Positions 1-12,922 of a DNA stretch of 64,000 nucleotides are shown here, piece after piece (position 1 is the stretch's first letter; the number at the start of each line of letters is the position of its first letter). Below the pieces are notes generated by a model, which saw nothing but the letters and a program-made list of their open reading frames with translations, ran no database searches and had not been told where the DNA came from. A program made the position numbers and the translations under genes. Source of the stretch: Bifidobacterium breve (GTDB taxonomy: Bacteria; Actinomycetota; Thermoleophilia; Solirubrobacterales; Solirubrobacteraceae); assembly GCA_945881845.1 (NCBI GenBank), contig CAMCVN010000009.1:1-64000 (forward strand), given 5' to 3'.

Positions 1-1374
1 GTTGCTGCAGCGGTTTCCGTAGCTGCCGCCCCCGCGGCTCCGGCTTCCAGCGCGAGCAGCGCCGTAGCTCCGGTCGCCGAAGGGCCTGCCCTGCTCTACG
101 GCGGCGACGGTTCGACCTGCTTCTGGCATGTTGGCGCTATCGGTGTCGAGACTTACAACATCGCCTACCCAGACGCCGGCGCTCACTACTGGGGCGCAAT
201 CTGGACCCACATCCCGGGCTCAACGCTGCGCCTCAAGGGCCAGTTCCCTTATGCGCGCTACACCTCGCTCAACGCCTACGACCGACTCGGCGCGATTCAG
301 GACACGATCAGCGACTTCCAGTGGAATCCTGATGCAGGCTCGTCCAATCCGTACCGGGTTGGTGTTCGGCGTGACGTCGCGAAGCGTAATTACACGTTGA
401 CGATTTCGCCCGATCGCTCGCCTATCGCGTTCGATCCCAACCGGCGCTCCAACGCTGCGGCTCGCAACACGATCTACACCGAGCCCGCTGGCGGCGACAC
501 GATCCGGGGGATCGCAATTCGCGTTTACATTCCGAACAAGGGTAAGAACATTGAGGGCGGCGTATCGTTGCCGAAGCCAGAGCTAACGCTCGCTGACGGC
601 ACCGTTCTGACCGGTCAGGCGGCTTGCGCTGCGCTCGGTTCAGAGACAGCGCAAACGCTCGATCCATCGGCGTTGCTGCTCTCAGCCGAGCAGTACGACG
701 CGCTCCGCTACCAGCCAGGCAAGCCGGACTACTTCCCGGCGCTTGCTGGTGGAAAGCCAAACTGGCGCACGCAGTACAACCGCCAGTACCTGCTGAACCT
801 CTTCCACCCGGAGGCCGATCCGATGCAGGGCGCGACCAAGCTCGGCCAGGCAGGGTTCTTCCCGAACGGTGACAACCAGTATGTAAGGAACGCGATCAAC
901 CGCAAGTTCGGCAAGGTCTACGCGCTGCGTGGGAAGATCGGTACGGCGGCGAAGACGTTCACGAACCCGAAGGGCAAGTGGGAGGCGACGGACCTTCGCT
1001 ATCAGTCGTTCTGCATGAACGAATCGCCGAAGACAACGCGAGTGATGGACTGCGTGTACGACGAGGAGGTCCCGCTCCGGGCCGGCCGCAAGTACCTCGT
1101 GATCACCAGCCGCGCTGTCGACAAGCCAAAGAACGCGACCAAGAAGTGCGGCGTGGCATGGATCGAATGGTCGTCTCGTGGAGACGGCGGAAAAGACACC
1201 GACTTCGGTTGGATGCAGATCCGCAACATGCTCCCGGCTGCTGGCTTCAAGCACGCGATCCAGGGCACGAGCACGCCAGGTGACGAGAAGAAGGTTCTCG
1301 GCGCTTACCTGCCGGACTCCAAGTACTACGCGGACAAGAAGGCATTCGAGAAGCTCGGCTGCCCAGCCAAGTAG
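1..1374 (+). CDS. Secreted DUF1214-like protein, 5' end missing
   Basis: The frame is open from base 1 to a TAG at 1372-1374 (457 codons), so the start lies before the window. The first ~25 visible residues are an Ala/Ser/Pro-rich stretch, as at the end of a signal peptide or in an extracellular linker. About residues 80-120 contain ARYTSLNAYD and DAGSSNPYRVG, which recall the RYMSF..YD and DPGSxNPF segments of DUF1214/DUF1254 proteins; this is from memory, not a search. Six cysteines are spread through the protein and fit an oxidised, exported product. No catalytic motif was recognised. A hairpin follows the stop at 1389-1446. Confidence 0.7.
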   Translation, partial: VAAAVSVAAAPAAPASSASSAVAPVAEGPALLYGGDGSTCFWHVGAIGVETYNIAYPDAGAHYWGAIWTHIPGSTLRLKGQFPYARYTSLNAYDRLGAIQDTISDFQWNPDAGSSNPYRVGVRRDVAKRNYTLTISPDRSPIAFDPNRRSNAAARNTIYTEPAGGDTIRGIAIRVYIPNKGKNIEGGVSLPKPELTLADGTVLTGQAACAALGSETAQTLDPSALLLSAEQYDALRYQPGKPDYFPALAGGKPNWRTQYNRQYLLNLFHPEADPMQGATKLGQAGFFPNGDNQYVRNAINRKFGKVYALRGKIGTAAKTFTNPKGKWEATDLRYQSFCMNESPKTTRVMDCVYDEEVPLRAGRKYLVITSRAVDKPKNATKKCGVAWIEWSSRGDGGKDTDFGWMQIRNMLPAAGFKHAIQGTSTPGDEKKVLGAYLPDSKYYADKKAFEKLGCPAK

Positions 1375-1388
1375 TTCTTTAGACGCTC

Positions 1389-1446
1389 AAGCAGCGCAAC
1401 ACTCGCGGCCCGGGTCCCTGATGGGGCTTGGGCCGCAGTGCTGCTT
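1389..1446 (+). terminator. Hairpin after the first gene, probable terminator
   Basis: AAGCAGC...CACT.GCGGCCC (1389-1411) pairs with GGGCCGCAGTGCTGCTT (1430-1446), leaving a small bulge and a ~18-nt loop. It starts 14 nt after the stop codon. There is no clean T-run after it, so its strength is uncertain. Confidence 0.5.
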
Positions 1447-1466
1447 GGGCTCAGTATTGACTTGGG

Positions 1467-1564
1467 CTTAAGTGCTTCGCCGGTCGCGCCGCCGAGGCGT
1501 GAAAGCGCCCTCCGGGCTGGCTTTCACGGGATTCCTCGGCCGGCGCGCCGACGAACCACTTAAG
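1467..1564. repeat. 98-bp imperfect palindrome
   Basis: The left arm 1467-1497 (CTTAAGTG...GCCGAGG) and the right arm 1534-1564 (CCTCGGC...CACTTAAG) are near-complementary over 31 bp with a few mismatches. An inner 8-bp stem GTGAAAGC (1499-1506)/GCTTTCAC (1520-1527) continues the same axis. Both outer ends are CTTAAG. The structure ends 4 nt before the GTG start at 1569. It could be a transcribed regulatory hairpin, a folded cruciform or a small mobile palindromic element; a terminator is less likely because it sits so close to the next start. Confidence 0.8.
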
Positions 1565-1568
1565 GCGT

Positions 1569-1817
1569 GTGGCTCGTACTGTGTTGCCGATGCTGACTCT
1601 CTTTGGTGCCTGTGCTGTGACGTTCATGATGTTGATGTATGCGTTGGAGAGCCGTGGCTCCCAGTTTGTTCTCTTCTTCGGCTTCGGCTGCCTGTTGTCG
1701 AGCGCGTACGGCTTCCTCGCAGGCGCTTGGCCCTTCGGCGTCGTCGAGGTGATCTGGGCAGTCGTTGCCTTCGCGCGCTACCGCGGCCTTCAGCGGTCGC
1801 CTAGCGCCGCGATTTAG
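1569..1817 (+). CDS. Small conserved-looking membrane protein (82 aa)
   Basis: This short ORF begins with GTG and encodes two to three hydrophobic segments: about residues 5-25 (LPMLTLFGACAVTFMMLMY), 30-50 and 55-70. The middle carries YGFLAGAWPFGVVEVIWAVVA, followed by a short basic tail. I recall similar small actinobacterial proteins of unknown function with a GAWPFG..E..WA core, and no function can be assigned. A longer ORF in another frame (1472-1804) is Arg-rich and not credible. The gene follows the long palindrome directly and converges on the NHL gene, with 15 bp between the two stops. Confidence 0.65.
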   Translation: MARTVLPMLTLFGACAVTFMMLMYALESRGSQFVLFFGFGCLLSSAYGFLAGAWPFGVVEVIWAVVAFARYRGLQRSPSAAI

Positions 1818-1832
1818 CCGCTGTCGCGAGCT

Positions 1833-3719
1833 TTAGCGCTTGCGCTTCAGCTTGACGATCTTCGTCTTCACGGTCGGCTTGCCCTTCGCTGGTGTGAAGG
1901 TCGTGCGGATCGTCAGCGTCATCGCCTTCTTGCGCAGAGCGGCTCGACTCTTCTTGCTCATCTTGCATTTCAGCGGATATTTGCCAGCAACCTTGACGAT
2001 CTTCGTCACCTTGCAGCGCGTGACCGTCTTGGCCTTTTTCTTCTTCTTGCTGACGCCTGCCTTCTTGGCCTTCTTCTTAGTGACGCGCGTCGTGGCGATC
2101 TGCGTGATCTTGCCGGCCCCTGGCACGCTGACGGCGGTTACGACGGTTACTGCCGTCTTCGTGATCAGCGGCGTGAACTTGACGGCCTCAAAAACCTTGA
2201 CGGCGGAGACCGGGCTGATCGAGCCGGAGGCCGCGGAGCCGGTTGATGTGCCGACCGCGTTGGTTGCGACGGAGGAGAAGGTGTACGCCACTCCGTTCGT
2301 TAGGCCGGTGATCGTGCACGAGCCGGCCGCGCCGGTAACTGTGCAGGTCTTCCCGCCCGGTGAGGCGGTGACTGTGTAGCTGGTTGGAGTGCCACCGCTG
2401 CCAGCGCTGACCGTGATCGTCGCCGAGCCGTCACCGGCAACTGCGGTCGGCGCCGGTGGCGTGCCGGGGGCAGCGGTCGCGGAGGCTGGGTTGACCGAAC
2501 CCGAGGCCGTCGAGCCGCCCGACGTTCCGCCAGCGTTGGTGGCGGTTGCTGAGAAGGTGTATGCGGTGCCGTTGCTGAGACCGGTGACGGTGCATGAGCC
2601 TGCCGCGCCGGTGACGGTGCAGGTACGTCCTCCGGGGAATGCGGTGACTGTGTAGCTGGTGGGCGCGCCGCCGCTTCCTGCAGCCACGGTCACTGTTGCG
2701 GAACCGTCACCGGCAACGGCGGTTGGCGTTGGCGGCGTGCCGGGGGCCAGCAGCTCAGAGATCGTCGAAACGCGGTTGGTCGCCTCGTTAGTCACGAAGA
2801 GCGTCCCGCTGGCGTTGATCGCGATGCTCCGGGGGTAGACCCAACTTGAGCTGATTCCCGAGCCGAAGGTGCTTGACCCGCCGACTTGTGTGACTTTCGA
2901 AATCGTGCTGGAGCCGAAGTTCGACGTGTAGACATTGCCGGCAGCGTCGAGGACAATGCCGCTGGGCTGAGCTCCGGTGCTGCCGAGCGTGGAAACCGCG
3001 CCCCCCGTCGTGATCTTCGAGACTGTCGCAGAAGCCCAATTCGCTACGTAAAGGTTGTCGCTGGAATCGATCGCAAGTGCTTCCGGCATAGTTCCAACCG
3101 CCGCGAAGGAACCTGTAGTCGTACCACCCGAAGTGATCTTTGAAACCGTTGCCACGGCGTAGTTGGCTGTGTACACGTTGCCAGCGGAGTCGATCGCAAT
3201 TCCGTGCGGGTTGGTTCCGGTGTTGGAAAGGTTGAACTTCGACGCTGATCCGGCGGCAGTGATCTTGGTTACGCTGCGCGAACCCTCGTTGGTCACGTAA
3301 ACGTTGTCGGCGCTGTCGATCGCGATCGCGTAAGGGTTGAGCTGGGCTGGCGCTGGCGCGATCGTCGTCGTCGAGCCATCGGCTGCTATCCGCGTGACGT
3401 CGTTTGAGGTGTAGTTGGCTGTGTAAATATTTCCAGCCGAATCAATTGCAATCCCATGCGGGTTGTCACCGGTCGCGTAAGTGGCGACGATTGTTCCGGA
3501 AGAGTTGATCTTTGAGACTGTGTCGAGCGCCGCGTTGGCGGTGTACACGTTGCCACTTGAATCGAGCGCGATGCCCCAGGGCGATGCGCCACTCGGTAGC
3601 GTGGCGAACGTCGTCGTTGTTGCCGCTGCCGACGCGGCGGCGGGGAGGGCGCCTGCGCCGACGGCGAGCAAGGCTGCTGCGGCGAGTGCGATGGATGAGT
3701 TCTTCTTGGACATTCTCAT
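1833..3719 (-). CDS. Secreted NHL-type beta-propeller protein with two FN3 domains and a basic tail
   Basis: The 628-aa product starts with a signal peptide (MRMSKKNSS then a long Ala/Leu run ending ASAAA). Residues ~35-330 are about seven repeats of the type P.GIA.DS.GN.YTAN....VSKI, the signature of NHL/Virginiamycin-B-lyase-like propellers. Two fibronectin type III-like domains follow (~330-420 and ~420-515), nearly identical to each other. The last ~70 residues are very rich in Lys/Arg (KKKAKKAG, KKSRAALRKK). The protein is probably exported and binds the cell surface or an anionic polymer through its tail. A GGAGA ribosome site lies 7 nt before the ATG at 3719. No catalytic residues could be identified, so a scaffold or ligand-binding role is as likely as an enzyme. 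Confidence 0.8.
   Translation of the reverse strand: MRMSKKNSSIALAAAALLAVGAGALPAAASAAATTTTFATLPSGASPWGIALDSSGNVYTANAALDTVSKINSSGTIVATYATGDNPHGIAIDSAGNIYTANYTSNDVTRIAADGSTTTIAPAPAQLNPYAIAIDSADNVYVTNEGSRSVTKITAAGSASKFNLSNTGTNPHGIAIDSAGNVYTANYAVATVSKITSGGTTTGSFAAVGTMPEALAIDSSDNLYVANWASATVSKITTGGAVSTLGSTGAQPSGIVLDAAGNVYTSNFGSSTISKVTQVGGSSTFGSGISSSWVYPRSIAINASGTLFVTNEATNRVSTISELLAPGTPPTPTAVAGDGSATVTVAAGSGGAPTSYTVTAFPGGRTCTVTGAAGSCTVTGLSNGTAYTFSATATNAGGTSGGSTASGSVNPASATAAPGTPPAPTAVAGDGSATITVSAGSGGTPTSYTVTASPGGKTCTVTGAAGSCTITGLTNGVAYTFSSVATNAVGTSTGSAASGSISPVSAVKVFEAVKFTPLITKTAVTVVTAVSVPGAGKITQIATTRVTKKKAKKAGVSKKKKKAKTVTRCKVTKIVKVAGKYPLKCKMSKKSRAALRKKAMTLTIRTTFTPAKGKPTVKTKIVKLKRKR
2197..2748 (-). repeat. 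Two tandem ~276-bp repeats coding FN3 domains
   Basis: Two copies, ~2473-2748 and ~2197-2472, lie head to tail inside the NHL/FN3 gene. Each encodes about 92 aa beginning APGTPP.PTAVAGDGSAT. The GTGCCGGGGGC junction recurs 276 bp apart. The copies differ by scattered substitutions, so the duplication is not brand new. Confidence 0.8.
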
Positions 3720-3859: not shown

Positions 3860-4468
3860 ATGGCCGTTGCAAAAGCCACGCGCGCAGAACGTTCCGACCC
3901 TGAGGTTCGCCGCGACCAGATGATCGATGTGGCGATGGCCGCCTTCGCAGATCGCGGCTACCCCGCCGTCGAGTTGAAGGAGATCGCAAGCGAAGTTGGC
4001 GTCACGCCAAACCTGATCCACCACTACTTCCCTGGTGGCAAGAGCGAACTGCACCTCGAGGCCGTAAAACGCGCCTGCGCGGAGCTTGAAGCGATGTTTG
4101 AGTCAAGCCCCGAGATTCCGGTCGCGAATAAGATGCCCGCGAACGTCGCGCGCTACGTCGACGAGGCGTTGGCCCCGACCGATCGTTGGAAGCTCTACGT
4201 CCGCTCGCTACGCAGCGCAGACGATGACCTCCGCGCCTGCGCGGTCGCGACGAGGCTCGCCGTGATGGAAGGGGTCTCGGCCAACCACCTTGGAACTTCG
4301 AACCCTTCCCCTGAAGTACGCGCCGCGCTCTTCGGCGTCTACGGCTTTCTCGAAGACTCATCCGACGAATGGCGCGCTCAAGCGATCAACGACCGCCCCA
4401 AGCTCGAGAACCTGATCATGGCGGTCCTCATCGCCGCGCTGACAGCAACCGCAGCGGACGATCGCTAG
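3860..4468 (+). CDS. TetR/AcrR-family transcriptional regulator
   Basis: About 202 aa from the chosen ATG. The N-terminal ~60 residues form a TetR helix-turn-helix: MIDVAMAAFADRGYPAVELKEIASEVGV, then TPNLIHHYFPGGKSEL, the usual recognition helix and 'YYHF.SKE.L' segment (the last part is written here as HHYFPGGKSEL). The C-terminal part is the variable helical ligand-binding domain. Such proteins are usually dimeric repressors of a nearby gene or of their own gene. The neighbours are the divergent NHL protein (3719, minus) and the convergent rmlB, so the 3720-3859 region is the natural operator candidate; I saw no clear inverted repeat there. The stop at 4466-4468 abuts the rmlB stop. Confidence 0.9.
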   Translation: MAVAKATRAERSDPEVRRDQMIDVAMAAFADRGYPAVELKEIASEVGVTPNLIHHYFPGGKSELHLEAVKRACAELEAMFESSPEIPVANKMPANVARYVDEALAPTDRWKLYVRSLRSADDDLRACAVATRLAVMEGVSANHLGTSNPSPEVRAALFGVYGFLEDSSDEWRAQAINDRPKLENLIMAVLIAALTATAADDR

Positions 4469-5455
4469 TTAGCCGAGCGAGCTGCCGTACTGGCGCTCGT
4501 AGTACTCGCGGTAGTCACCGGAGCGGATCGGCTCCCACCACCAAGTGTTCTCTTGGTACCAGGCAACCGTTTCGGCGAGACCCTCTTCAAAGCGAACCTT
4601 CGCTTCCCAGCCAAGTGCCTTCACTTTCTCCGAACCAAGCGAGTAGCGGCGGTCATGGCCGGGGCGGTCATCTACATAGGTCAGCAGTGACTCGTCGGCG
4701 CCGGTCAGCGCGATGATTCGCTCAACGACCTCAAGGTTGACGCACTCGTCTGGGCCGCCGACGTTGTAAACCTCGCCGCTAGTCCCGTGGGCGAGAACAT
4801 GGCCGATGCCGGCGCAGAAATCGCTCACATGGAGCCAGTTGCGTACCTGCTGGCCGTCGCCGTAGACCGGCAGCGGGTCGCCATGGATCGCGTTGAGGAT
4901 CATCAGCGGGATCAGCTTCTCCGGGTACTGGTAGGGGCCATAGTTGTTTGAGCCGCGGCAGATCACCGTTTCGAGATCGAACGTGCGGCTGTACGACTGG
5001 ACGAGCAGGTCGGCGCCGGTCTTCGTTGCGCTGTAAGGCGATGACGGTTCGAGCGGGCTCTCTTCGGTGAACGAACCGGATTCGATCGATCCGTAAACCT
5101 CGTCGGTTGATACTTGGAGGTAGCGGAGCGAATGCTCGCGAGCAGCTTCGAGCAGGACGAAGGTTCCAAGCGCGTGCGTGCGGACGAAGGCGTCGGGTTC
5201 GGAGATTGAGCGGTCAACGTGCGTTTCGGCCGCGAAGTTGACGACCGCGTCTACGCCGGCGATCGCGTCGGCAACGGCGGATGGATCCTCAATCGCTCCG
5301 TGGACGAAGCGGTGTTCAACGTCCTGCAGGTTCTCCTTGCGACCGGCGTAGGTCAGCTTGTCCAGCACAGTTACTTCGTCTCCGTGTTCGCCTACGCGGG
5401 CGCGGACGAAGTTGGAGCCGATAAATCCTGCGCCACCGCAGACCAGAAGTTTCAC
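4469..5455 (-). CDS. rmlB: dTDP-glucose 4,6-dehydratase
   Basis: This 328-aa extended SDR enzyme converts dTDP-glucose to dTDP-4-keto-6-deoxyglucose, the second step of dTDP-L-rhamnose synthesis. The NAD-binding GGAGFIGS is at residues 7-14, and AETHVDRSI at ~76-84 is typical of RmlB. The TDE triad element is at 117-119 (STDEVYG), and the catalytic Tyr/Lys pair is Y141/K145 in YSATK. RGSNNYGPYQYPEKLIP near residue 167 is the usual substrate-site block. Length and motifs match the family. It is last in the leftward rmlA-rmlD-rmlB unit, and its start codon directly abuts the rmlD stop. Confidence 0.96.
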   Translation of the reverse strand: MKLLVCGGAGFIGSNFVRARVGEHGDEVTVLDKLTYAGRKENLQDVEHRFVHGAIEDPSAVADAIAGVDAVVNFAAETHVDRSISEPDAFVRTHALGTFVLLEAAREHSLRYLQVSTDEVYGSIESGSFTEESPLEPSSPYSATKTGADLLVQSYSRTFDLETVICRGSNNYGPYQYPEKLIPLMILNAIHGDPLPVYGDGQQVRNWLHVSDFCAGIGHVLAHGTSGEVYNVGGPDECVNLEVVERIIALTGADESLLTYVDDRPGHDRRYSLGSEKVKALGWEAKVRFEEGLAETVAWYQENTWWWEPIRSGDYREYYERQYGSSLG

Positions 5456-6333: not shown

Positions 6334-7407
6334 TCAGACAACTCCGATGTCGGATCGGTCTCCTACCAGGAAGCGGTAAGCCGATGGCTGCCCGTCGGAG
6401 CGGGCGATAGTCACATCGCGGCCGAGCAACGAGGATTCAACGCGGGCATTGAGGTCGGTAACCGAACTGCCTTCGAGCAGGATTGAGTTTTCAACCTCGG
6501 CCCGCTCGACGACGCAGCGCTCACCGATCGCCGAGTAGGGGCCAACGTAGGCGTCGATCAGCCGTGCTCCGGCGCCGATTACGGCCGGGCCGCGGACCGT
6601 TGAGCGCTCAAGGATCGCTCCGGCCTCGACGATCACGCGTCCTTCGCAGGTTGAATCGATCAGCTCGCCGTCGAGCCGGCGCTCGACCGTGTCGAGTACC
6701 AGCCGGTTCGCTTCCAGCATGTCTTCGAGCCGGCCGGTGTCCTTCCACCAACCCTGAACCACGTGAGGCTCAACGCGCTTGCCCTCGTCAACGAGGTATT
6801 GAATCGCGTCGGTTATCTCAAGCTCGCCGCGGGCCGACGGTTCGATCGCCCGCGCTGCGTCATGAATCCCTGCCGTGAACATGTAGACGCCGACGAGCGC
6901 GAGGTTGGTCTTCGGCTCCGGCGGCTTCTCCTGAAGGCTGATCACGCGGTCGCCGTCGAGCTCGGCAACGCCGTAGTTCTCAGGGTCGGAGACCGGCGTC
7001 AGCAGAATCAGTGCGTCGGGGCTGCTGGAGCGGAAGGCTTCGACAAGGTCACTAATCCCACCCTGCAGCAGGTTGTCGCCGAGGTACATGACGAACGGAT
7101 CCGTGCCGAGGAACTCTTCCGCCGTCAGCACAGCGTGGGCGAGTCCGGCCGGTTGGTCCTGCTCGATGAAGGTGACGTTGACGCCGAACTGCTCGCCGCT
7201 GCCGACCATCTCGCGGATCTCATCGCCGGTCTCGGGCGCGATGATGATCCCGATCTCTTTGATCCCGGCGCTGGCCATTGCGTCGATCCCGTAGAACAGC
7301 ACCGGGCGGTTGGCTACCGGCACCAGCTGCTTGGCGCTGGTGAAGGTGATCGGCTGCAGGCGCGTGCCTTTACCGCCGGAGAGAATTAGGCCCTTGAGCT
7401 GTTCCAT
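6334..7407 (-). CDS. rmlA: Glucose-1-phosphate thymidylyltransferase, long form
   Basis: The 357-aa nucleotidyltransferase makes dTDP-glucose from glucose-1-phosphate and dTTP. The signature GGKGTRLQPIT is at ~11-21, AKQLVPVANRP at ~25-35, LGDN at ~109 and WWKDTGRLEDMLEANR at ~220. The C-terminal ~120 residues add hexapeptide (left-handed beta-helix) repeats such as VIGAGARLIDAYVGPYSAIG. This makes it the long class seen in actinobacteria and archaea rather than the ~290-aa enterobacterial form. It starts the rml unit, and a TAGCCT box stands 7 nt before its ATG. Confidence 0.93.
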   Translation of the reverse strand: MEQLKGLILSGGKGTRLQPITFTSAKQLVPVANRPVLFYGIDAMASAGIKEIGIIIAPETGDEIREMVGSGEQFGVNVTFIEQDQPAGLAHAVLTAEEFLGTDPFVMYLGDNLLQGGISDLVEAFRSSSPDALILLTPVSDPENYGVAELDGDRVISLQEKPPEPKTNLALVGVYMFTAGIHDAARAIEPSARGELEITDAIQYLVDEGKRVEPHVVQGWWKDTGRLEDMLEANRLVLDTVERRLDGELIDSTCEGRVIVEAGAILERSTVRGPAVIGAGARLIDAYVGPYSAIGERCVVERAEVENSILLEGSSVTDLNARVESSLLGRDVTIARSDGQPSAYRFLVGDRSDIGVV

Positions 7408-11851: not shown

Positions 11852-12922
11852 ATGCCACTGCGTCGACGTTCCCGCGACACCGCCCCTGCCACCCCTGTGG
11901 CCGGCGTCCCAGCCCCGGCCGCGACAACAGCGCCGGCAGCGGTTGGCGCGCCCGGCGAACTGCGCGCCGGCGTTGACCTCGGCGGCACAAAGATCCTCGT
12001 CGTCGTCGTTGATGGCAACAACAAGATTCTCGCTCGCTCGCGCGCCGAAACCCCTCACAAAGGTGGCCCGCAGGCCGTCGCCGATCAGATCGCGACCAAC
12101 ATCGATGACGCGCTCGGCCAAGCTGGAGCTGACGCAAAGGACCTGAAGGGGATTGGCGTCGGTTCGCCCGGTTCGGTAGACCAGGCAGCCGGTACGGTCG
12201 CCAACGCCAGCAACCTGCCCGACTGGATGGAACCGTTCCCACTCGGCGGCGTGCTCTCCCAGCGCTTCGGCAACCTTCCCGTGCGGCTCGGCAACGACGT
12301 CAGCGTGGCGGTTAACGCCGAGTACAAGCTCGGCGCAGGTCGGCCTTACGACTCGCTGCTCGGCGTTTGGTGGGGAACCGGCGTCGGCGGCGGCCTGATT
12401 ATCGATCGCCGCCAGTGGGATGGCCGCGGCTACGCAGGTGAATTTGGCCACATGGTGATCGAGCTGGGCGGCGCCAAGTGCGGCTGCGGCAATCGCGGCT
12501 GCGTTGAGGCTTACGCTGGGCGCCGCGACATGGAGGCCTGGGTTCGCAAGCAGCGCAAGAAGGGCAAGAAGACCGACCTCGTCAAGATCATGAAGCACCG
12601 CGAACGCGAGTCATTCACGAGCGGCATTTGGGCGAAGGGGATTCGCACCGACGACAAGCTTGCCGCCAAGGCAGTCAATCGGGCGATCGCAGCGATCTCG
12701 GCGGGGATTGGTTCGACCGTCAACCTGCTCGACGTTCCGGCGGTCGTGATCGGCGGTGGCATGGGCGAGCGCTTCTTCAGCGATCGTCAAGCCGAGTTCG
12801 AGAGCGAGACTGCCAAGCACCTGTTCCGCAAGGAGGCGCCGCCGGCGCTGCTGGCGACAGAGCTCGGCGATGATGGCGGCGCGCTCGGCGCAGCACTTCT
12901 CGTACTTGCCGGTACGCAGTAA
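11852..12922 (+). CDS. ROK-family glucokinase
   Basis: 356 aa. After a ~35-residue Ala/Pro-rich N-terminal extension, DLGGTK at 42-47 is the phosphate-binding loop and GIGVGSPGSVD the second. NDVSVAVNAEYKLGAG contains the catalytic Asp. HMVIELGGAKCGCGNRGCVEAYAG is the ROK zinc signature, with three Cys and an upstream His. It phosphorylates glucose or a related hexose in the cytoplasm; phosphate donor choice (ATP or polyphosphate) cannot be read from the sequence. The extension is unusual, and an alternative downstream start is possible, although no good ATG lies near residue 35. Confidence 0.9.
   Translation: MPLRRRSRDTAPATPVAGVPAPAATTAPAAVGAPGELRAGVDLGGTKILVVVVDGNNKILARSRAETPHKGGPQAVADQIATNIDDALGQAGADAKDLKGIGVGSPGSVDQAAGTVANASNLPDWMEPFPLGGVLSQRFGNLPVRLGNDVSVAVNAEYKLGAGRPYDSLLGVWWGTGVGGGLIIDRRQWDGRGYAGEFGHMVIELGGAKCGCGNRGCVEAYAGRRDMEAWVRKQRKKGKKTDLVKIMKHRERESFTSGIWAKGIRTDDKLAAKAVNRAIAAISAGIGSTVNLLDVPAVVIGGGMGERFFSDRQAEFESETAKHLFRKEAPPALLATELGDDGGALGAALLVLAGTQ

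What the first reader, a model, noticed from the sequence alone, without database searches (positions are those of the whole stretch)
1467..1564. 98-bp imperfect palindrome ending 4 nt before a small membrane-protein gene
Outer arms of 31 bp with few mismatches plus an inner 8-bp stem on the same axis, ends CTTAAG. It is too close to the GTG at 1569 to be a simple terminator for a gene that reads through it. A long stem here could sequester the start of an 82-aa membrane protein, or the unit could be a mobile palindromic element.
Basis: seen in the sequence. Interest (0 to 1): 0.55.

Follow-up and report, generated by a model that had tools for sequence, protein, structure and literature searches.

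The report
Conserved long hairpins after gene ends
The palindrome is one member of a small family of roughly 75 to 100-base hairpins found in one bacterial genus just after the ends of a few genes; they change far more slowly than nearby DNA, sometimes flip in place, and probably shape messenger-RNA ends rather than control the small gene beside this copy.

Summary
In detail: window 1467-1564 is an imperfect palindrome and the best-folding stretch scanned in the 64 kb. As a start-site stem for the 82-aa membrane gene it fails: the likely start is ATG 1590, 40 non-carrier relatives of that gene lack such a stem, and only 4 of 16 close copies precede it. It belongs to a small repeat family with no clear match outside its genus. 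I found 23 copies in 10 of 17 genus genomes, each after a gene: a 484-aa protein (site A, this copy), a lipoprotein (B), rfbB (C) or, as a diverged form, rpmA (D). The own genome has A and D. Intact A copies differ by 3-7%, D cores by 1-8%, against 18-32% and 13-41% at four-fold sites of neighbouring genes. Arms change in compensating pairs. The core is reversed in 2 of 7 D and 1 of 7 C copies; one copy is an A/C hybrid. Best reading: an old ERIC-like palindrome, retained as an orientation-indifferent 3'-end hairpin (partial terminator or RNA-processing site). Template switching between arms may explain the flips and part of the covariation. The RNA role is inferred, not tested.

The parts
1467..1564 (.). 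palindromic element, copy A
1467..1497 (+). left outer arm
1534..1564 (+). right outer arm
1498..1528 (+). inner hairpin: 13 pairs (1498-1510 with 1514-1528), 2-nt bulge, 3-nt loop
1529..1533 (+). one-sided 5-nt bulge, the asymmetry that shows orientation; the surrounding core (CACGGAATTCC in most copies) is shared with the rpmA-site copies
1388..1447 (+). separate hairpin after the 484-aa protein gene; also present in L106, which lacks the palindrome at this place
   Evidence: read by eye
1..1374 (+). 3' part of the protein gene (484 aa in L101; 'secreted' is my reading of its N-terminus, no family match) whose end the element follows, 92 nt after the stop in 5 of 5 copies at this gene, the window's included
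1590..1817 (+). small membrane-protein gene, probable real start ATG 1590 (not GTG 1569)
4468..4469 (.). abutting stop codons of tetR (+) and rfbB (-) where relatives have site C and other genes; no copy here

Best explanation
The palindrome is copy A of a small family of long, GC-rich, nearly symmetrical hairpins found in one genus (record titles of relatives say Solirubrobacterales or Actinomycetota). Shown: homologous copies lie at four kinds of place, each downstream of a gene (lipoprotein, 484-aa protein, rfbB, rpmA); they keep their pairing and, apart from one hybrid copy, diverge much less than four-fold sites of neighbouring genes at the two sites measured (A and D); they can lie in either orientation at the same place; one copy is a recombinant of two others. 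Inferred: the element spread to these places long ago in the manner of ERIC/NEMIS-type repeats, and is retained because its transcript forms a strong hairpin at the 3' end of the upstream gene, acting as a partial terminator, a barrier between converging transcripts, or an RNase III-type processing site. Its near-symmetry would make orientation irrelevant. Also inferred: polymerase template switching between the arms produces the in-place inversions and part of the paired changes.
For: Family: 16 A/B/C copies in 8 of 17 genus genomes; D after rpmA in 7 of the 13 genomes whose rpmA end could be read. Model R1, built from A/B/C alone, finds 3 of the 7 D copies, at E 2e-8 to 2e-6. Position: 15 of 16 A/B/C copies begin 17-92 nt after a stop codon, the 16th 105 nt after it across a run of N; all 7 D copies follow the rpmA stop. 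Conservation: A, 2.9-6.9% against 18.4-31.6% at four-fold sites and 11-20% in the 90 nt before it, 6 pairs without the hybrid; D core, 1.3-7.8% against 12.7-40.5%, 21 pairs. Pairing: 97.3% of cells paired and 33 cells changed on both sides against 12.9 in shuffles, 0 of 500 shuffles as high; 8 pairs with such changes, 2 of 500 as high. Variable columns lie more often in unpaired positions for A (4 rows), C (6 rows) and D (7 rows), Fisher p 0.04, 0.01, 0.0002. Terminators without a U-tract and hairpin clusters are described (PMC8355165, abstract and one section).
Against: No T-run follows and the terminator scan of window 1300-1900 found none. At A the gene already has its own hairpin. After 3 A copies, 1 B copy and several C copies a gene on the same strand begins shortly after the element, so a full terminator would silence it. 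No RNA data exist. For B (4 rows) the paired/unpaired contrast is not significant (p 0.36), the G004 C copy and the hybrid were left out of that test, and the structure came from the same sequences, so the test leans towards pairing. One of the five pairing measures is not clearly above shuffles (48 of 500 as high), and related sequences inflate the others. R1 missed 4 of 7 D copies at E 1, so D's kinship rests on 3 model hits and the shared core. The limits of the D core were chosen where it is conserved. There are only four kinds of place, and most intergenic spaces lie after some gene. The hybrid copy diverges 10-15%, about as much as its surroundings.
Confidence: 0.5

Rival explanations
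1. A non-autonomous mobile palindrome (MITE- or ERIC-like) with no host function, inserted at several places and possibly still mobile; both orientations at one place would be separate insertions.
For: Copies share sequence up to the palindrome ends but not the flanks between sites; presence and absence vary between species; both orientations occur at sites C and D.
Against: Copies resemble each other by place rather than by genome; intact A and D copies diverge far less than four-fold sites; at most 4 A/B/C/D copies found per genome; Y1 (REP-type) transposase in 0 of 17 genomes; no match in viral contigs by two exact patterns or in plasmids by blastn. No clear target duplication seen by eye.
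Confidence: 0.25
2. Mainly a mutational product: polymerase template switching between the arms keeps copying one arm onto the other and flips the middle, giving paired changes and inversions without selection on a transcript.
For: The process is described to homogenise arms and invert spacers, and its authors report that non-coding regions with inverted repeats in proteobacteria are more conserved than their surroundings and read this as repeated template switching (PMC8604942, passages). The D core is reversed in G000 and G005 though G005's nearest relative on the tree, G010, has it forward.
Against: Neutral arm copying alone should not lower the total rate of change severalfold (my inference; those authors read conservation as a sign of template switching). 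It does not explain spread to unlinked places. The spacer inversions described in the passages I saw change 2-5 bp, not a core of about 74.
Confidence: 0.18
3. A leader stem that controls translation of the small membrane protein.
For: Closeness of 4 nt to GTG 1569.
Against: Start probably at 1590; no comparable fold upstream of 40 non-carrier relatives; 12 of 16 A/B/C copies and all 7 D copies do not precede this gene.
Confidence: 0.03
4. A single-strand recombination site like an integron attC that shuffles the genes between copies.
For: Gene content between copies varies; the G007 copy joins an A-type left half to a C-type right half with the genes between A and C absent there.
Against: 0 of 17 genomes have an integron integrase over the model's cut-off; all 17 have weaker matches, as expected of other tyrosine recombinases, and no control genome passed the cut-off either, so the search lacked a positive control. 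The attC box motifs, recalled from memory, are not at the ends. Ordinary homologous recombination between copies would explain the deletion.
Confidence: 0.04

Closest known systems
ERIC / NEMIS (Correia) and similar bacterial MITEs
   Same: Units of about 100-200 bp, mostly intergenic, whose transcripts form long stem-loops, proposed to affect stability or processing of neighbouring mRNAs (PMC2229807, part 1 of 3 and passages).
   Different: GC-rich, no TA ends, no target duplication seen, few copies per genome, same places across species, slow evolution. For ERIC the mRNA effect is said to depend on orientation, here both orientations occur.
REP sequences
   Same: Palindromic, extragenic.
   Different: REPs are 20-40 bp, in high copy in some genomes, most with a GTAG or CGTC tag (PMC3733652, title and abstract start in a listing); here about 75-100 bp and few copies; no Y1 transposase in the genus.
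Factor-independent transcription terminators, including hairpin clusters without a U-tract
   Same: Strong hairpin soon after a stop codon; at A the second of two hairpins (PMC8355165, abstract and one section).
   Different: Much longer stem, sequence shared between unrelated places, same-strand genes often start soon after it.
Stem-loop repeat families of Cozzuto et al. 2008
   Same: Many structured repeat families that lie in intergenic regions (PMC2267715, abstract and one section).
   Different: That survey covered 40 genomes; in the parts I saw this genus is not named. I made no sequence comparison with its families.

Membership tests
ERIC/NEMIS-type bacterial MITE | small unit (about 100-200 bp) with terminal inverted repeats | tested here: met
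   98 bp, 31-nt arms; the D core is 74-75 nt plus a variable outer stem, a little under the range
ERIC/NEMIS-type bacterial MITE | TA at the ends, A+T-rich | tested here: not met
   ends such as CTTAAG, CGTGAG, CTCAAG; G+C-rich
ERIC/NEMIS-type bacterial MITE | target site duplication | tested here: inconclusive
   none consistent by eye in printed flanks; empty sites too diverged
ERIC/NEMIS-type bacterial MITE | many dispersed copies | tested here: not met
   at most 4 found per genome, in incomplete bins
REP | 20-40 bp, high copy, Y1 transposase partner | tested here: not met
   PF01797 in 0 of 17 genomes, control positive in 5 of 14; length and copy number
Intrinsic terminator | hairpin shortly after a stop codon | tested here: met
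   for A/B/C, for D
Intrinsic terminator | run of T after the stem | tested here: not met
   copy A only, window 1300-1900
Intrinsic terminator | transcription actually ends there | not testable with these tools
   no RNA data
Translational leader of the membrane gene | stem conserved with the gene | tested here: not met
   40 non-carrier relatives without unusual fold
Integron attC site | integron integrase in the genome | tested here: not met
   TIGR02249 over cut-off in 0 of 17; no positive control among the 14 control genomes
Any Rfam family | match at the gathering score | tested here: not met
   three sub-threshold hits only in window 1200-1900

The most novel reading that the evidence does not exclude
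A genus-specific hairpin module that is selected for pairing and works in either orientation, installed at the 3' ends of a few genes including rpmA, and that inverts in place often enough to differ between closest relatives. It would act as a symmetric boundary between neighbouring transcripts and, as a side effect, as a junction at which the genes between copies are lost.
Probability: 0.2. Interest if true: 0.55.

Novelty: new member of a known kind. Interest (0 to 1): 0.38.

Why it matters
It is a small, clean case in which palindromes at the same places can be followed across related species: arms changing in pairs, cores inverting in place and copies recombining, against the known divergence of neighbouring genes. 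That could help to separate selection on a hairpin from template-switch mutation. It also marks candidate 3'-end signals in a lineage known here almost only from metagenome bins. None of the titles listed in my six paper searches is about such an element in this lineage, the one that named Solirubrobacterales, listed 10 of 1,164 papers, so this is weak evidence of absence.

Tried and rejected
Repeat finder on the window with a minimum of 18 nt: did not list the palindrome. Weak arm matches: of 39 besides the window's own copy in the own genome I folded five, plus window 12875-12898 found; none of these six is a copy. Core pattern with one mismatch: 33 hits in 15 of 17 genomes; of twelve that I folded ten are not family hairpins and two are D copies; most of the rest are known copies; one, in G007 contig C129, was not examined. 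R1 outside the genus: G128 (E 0.002) and G125 (E 0.09) lie in open reading frames; the G128 stretch folds as a long hairpin but was not pursued. R2 hit in G108 (E 0.04) not followed; R2 was run on the family only, 146 genomes. R1 over 232 genomes of the order: no genus but the own at E 0.001, with filters that lose weak matches. Rfam, viral contigs, plasmids: nothing. Integron and REP-transposase ideas: not supported. The pairing counts are of sequences, not independent events; copies fall into a few site groups, so the number of independent paired changes is small.

Full report
What is there. Window 1467-1564 is an imperfect palindrome: outer arms 1467-1497 and 1534-1564, an inner hairpin 1498-1528, and a one-sided 5-nt bulge 1529-1533. 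The fold of 1450-1600 is far better than shuffles (z -5.6), and the stretch starting at 1461 is the best-folding of the 110-nt stretches taken every 20 nt through the window. It follows the end of a protein gene (stop at 1374) that has a hairpin of its own at 1388-1447, and precedes a small membrane-protein gene. That gene has relatives at 47 loci. Its start is more likely ATG 1590 than GTG 1569, because L108 has an in-frame TAG two codons upstream of the equivalent position and 32 of 47 matches begin at residue 6-9 of the 82.

A family. The own genome has no close second copy. Among 17 genus genomes, 8 hold 16 strong copies in all. They lie at three neighbouring places: A, after the 484-aa protein gene; B, after a 145-aa lipoprotein gene; C, after rfbB. 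Gene order between them varies. What follows a copy is the membrane gene, the 484-aa gene, a methyltransferase gene, a bestrophin-like gene, another gene, or a convergent gene. The window has no C: its tetR and rfbB stop codons abut at 4468/4469. A covariance model of these 16 copies found a diverged form, D, after rpmA in 3 genomes. Reading the end of rpmA in the 13 genomes where it was complete (15 of 17 had a match, 2 of them cut short) showed D in 7, including the own genome (G000 contig C3, about 7093-7193), and none in 6. A/B/C and D share the core CACGGAATTCC around the bulge, with single changes; the D model in turn finds A, B or C copies only weakly (E 0.008-0.04). In all, 23 copies in 10 of 17 genomes. 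Over 232 genomes of the order no other genus gave an R1 match at E 0.001; with the D model only the family was searched, with one weak hit outside the genus that I did not follow. Two bins (G008, G012) each hold two versions of rfbB with C, so they may be strain mixtures and copy numbers are approximate.

Conservation and pairing. Between the four intact A copies the element differs at 2.9-6.9% of positions, while four-fold sites of the 484-aa gene differ at 18.4-31.6% and the 90 nt before the element at 11-20%. The hybrid G007 copy differs more (9.8-14.7%). The D core differs at 1.3-7.8% against 12.7-40.5% at four-fold sites of rpmA and the SDR gene, over 21 pairs; for G005 only about 55 such sites were available, and the core limits were chosen where the alignment is conserved. 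I did not measure B and C in this way. On the A/B/C alignment 97.3% of cells form standard pairs and 8 of 40 pairs have changes on both sides; slid versions reach at most 44.1% and 2 pairs. Shuffles reach the percentage paired, the changed cells and the covariation score in 0 of 500, the 8 pairs in 2 of 500, and the number of pair types in 48 of 500. Variable columns are enriched at unpaired positions for A, C and D but not significantly for B; the G004 C copy and the hybrid were left out, and the structure came from the same sequences.

Inversions and recombination. At D the 74-75-nt core is forward in 5 copies and reversed in 2. G013 and G010 match at 74 of 74; G013 against G005 matches 73 of 74 only after reverse-complementing, 59 of 67 as they stand. 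On a tree of about 1.5 kb of rne-rplU-rpmA from 10 genomes, G005 (reversed) and G010 (forward) are sisters with full support; most other inner branches are unresolved, but the label still needs at least two changes. At C the G004 copy is opposite to the other 6. The G007 copy joins an A-type left half to a C-type right half, with the genes between A and C absent there, as recombination between direct copies would give.

How it probably works. Shown: dispersal of one sequence to several 3' ends, conserved pairing, both orientations at one place. Inferred: retention because a transcribed hairpin ends or trims the upstream message, or separates converging transcripts. Precedents are ERIC and NEMIS elements acting on neighbouring mRNAs (PMC2229807), although the ERIC effect is said to depend on orientation, and terminators without a U-tract (PMC8355165). 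Template switching between arms is described to homogenise arms and invert spacers (PMC8604942, passages) and may have produced the flips and part of the paired changes. The authors of that work also read conservation of inverted repeats as a sign of template switching. I argue that a neutral process should not lower the overall rate several times, and therefore also invoke selection; this step is argument, not measurement.

What speaks against it. No T-run at A; genes on the same strand start soon after several copies; only four kinds of place; no RNA data. The start-sequestering idea fails the comparison with 40 non-carrier relatives and the presence of the element beside other genes.

Verdict. 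A real, conserved and somewhat unusual feature: a new family of a known kind, with an untested RNA role.

Noticed in passing
L098, about 5050-5080, just beyond copy B; L107, just beyond its B copy: A right-half fragment of the element follows the full copy in G007, a more decayed one in G013 (read by eye): perhaps remains of an extra copy.
   Followed up: partly
window 1388-1447: A separate hairpin after the 484-aa protein gene, conserved in the window and four relatives with A, and in L106, which has no palindrome there.
   Followed up: partly
window 4468-4469: tetR and rfbB stop codons abut where relatives carry site C and further genes, probably a lineage-specific deletion.
   Followed up: partly
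L099/L100 (G008) and L103/L104 (G012): Two versions of the rfbB region in one bin each: strain mixture or duplication.
   Followed up: no
L108, L109: Lipoprotein gene followed directly by the membrane gene without element or 484-aa gene, perhaps the older order.
   Followed up: partly
   Followed up: no
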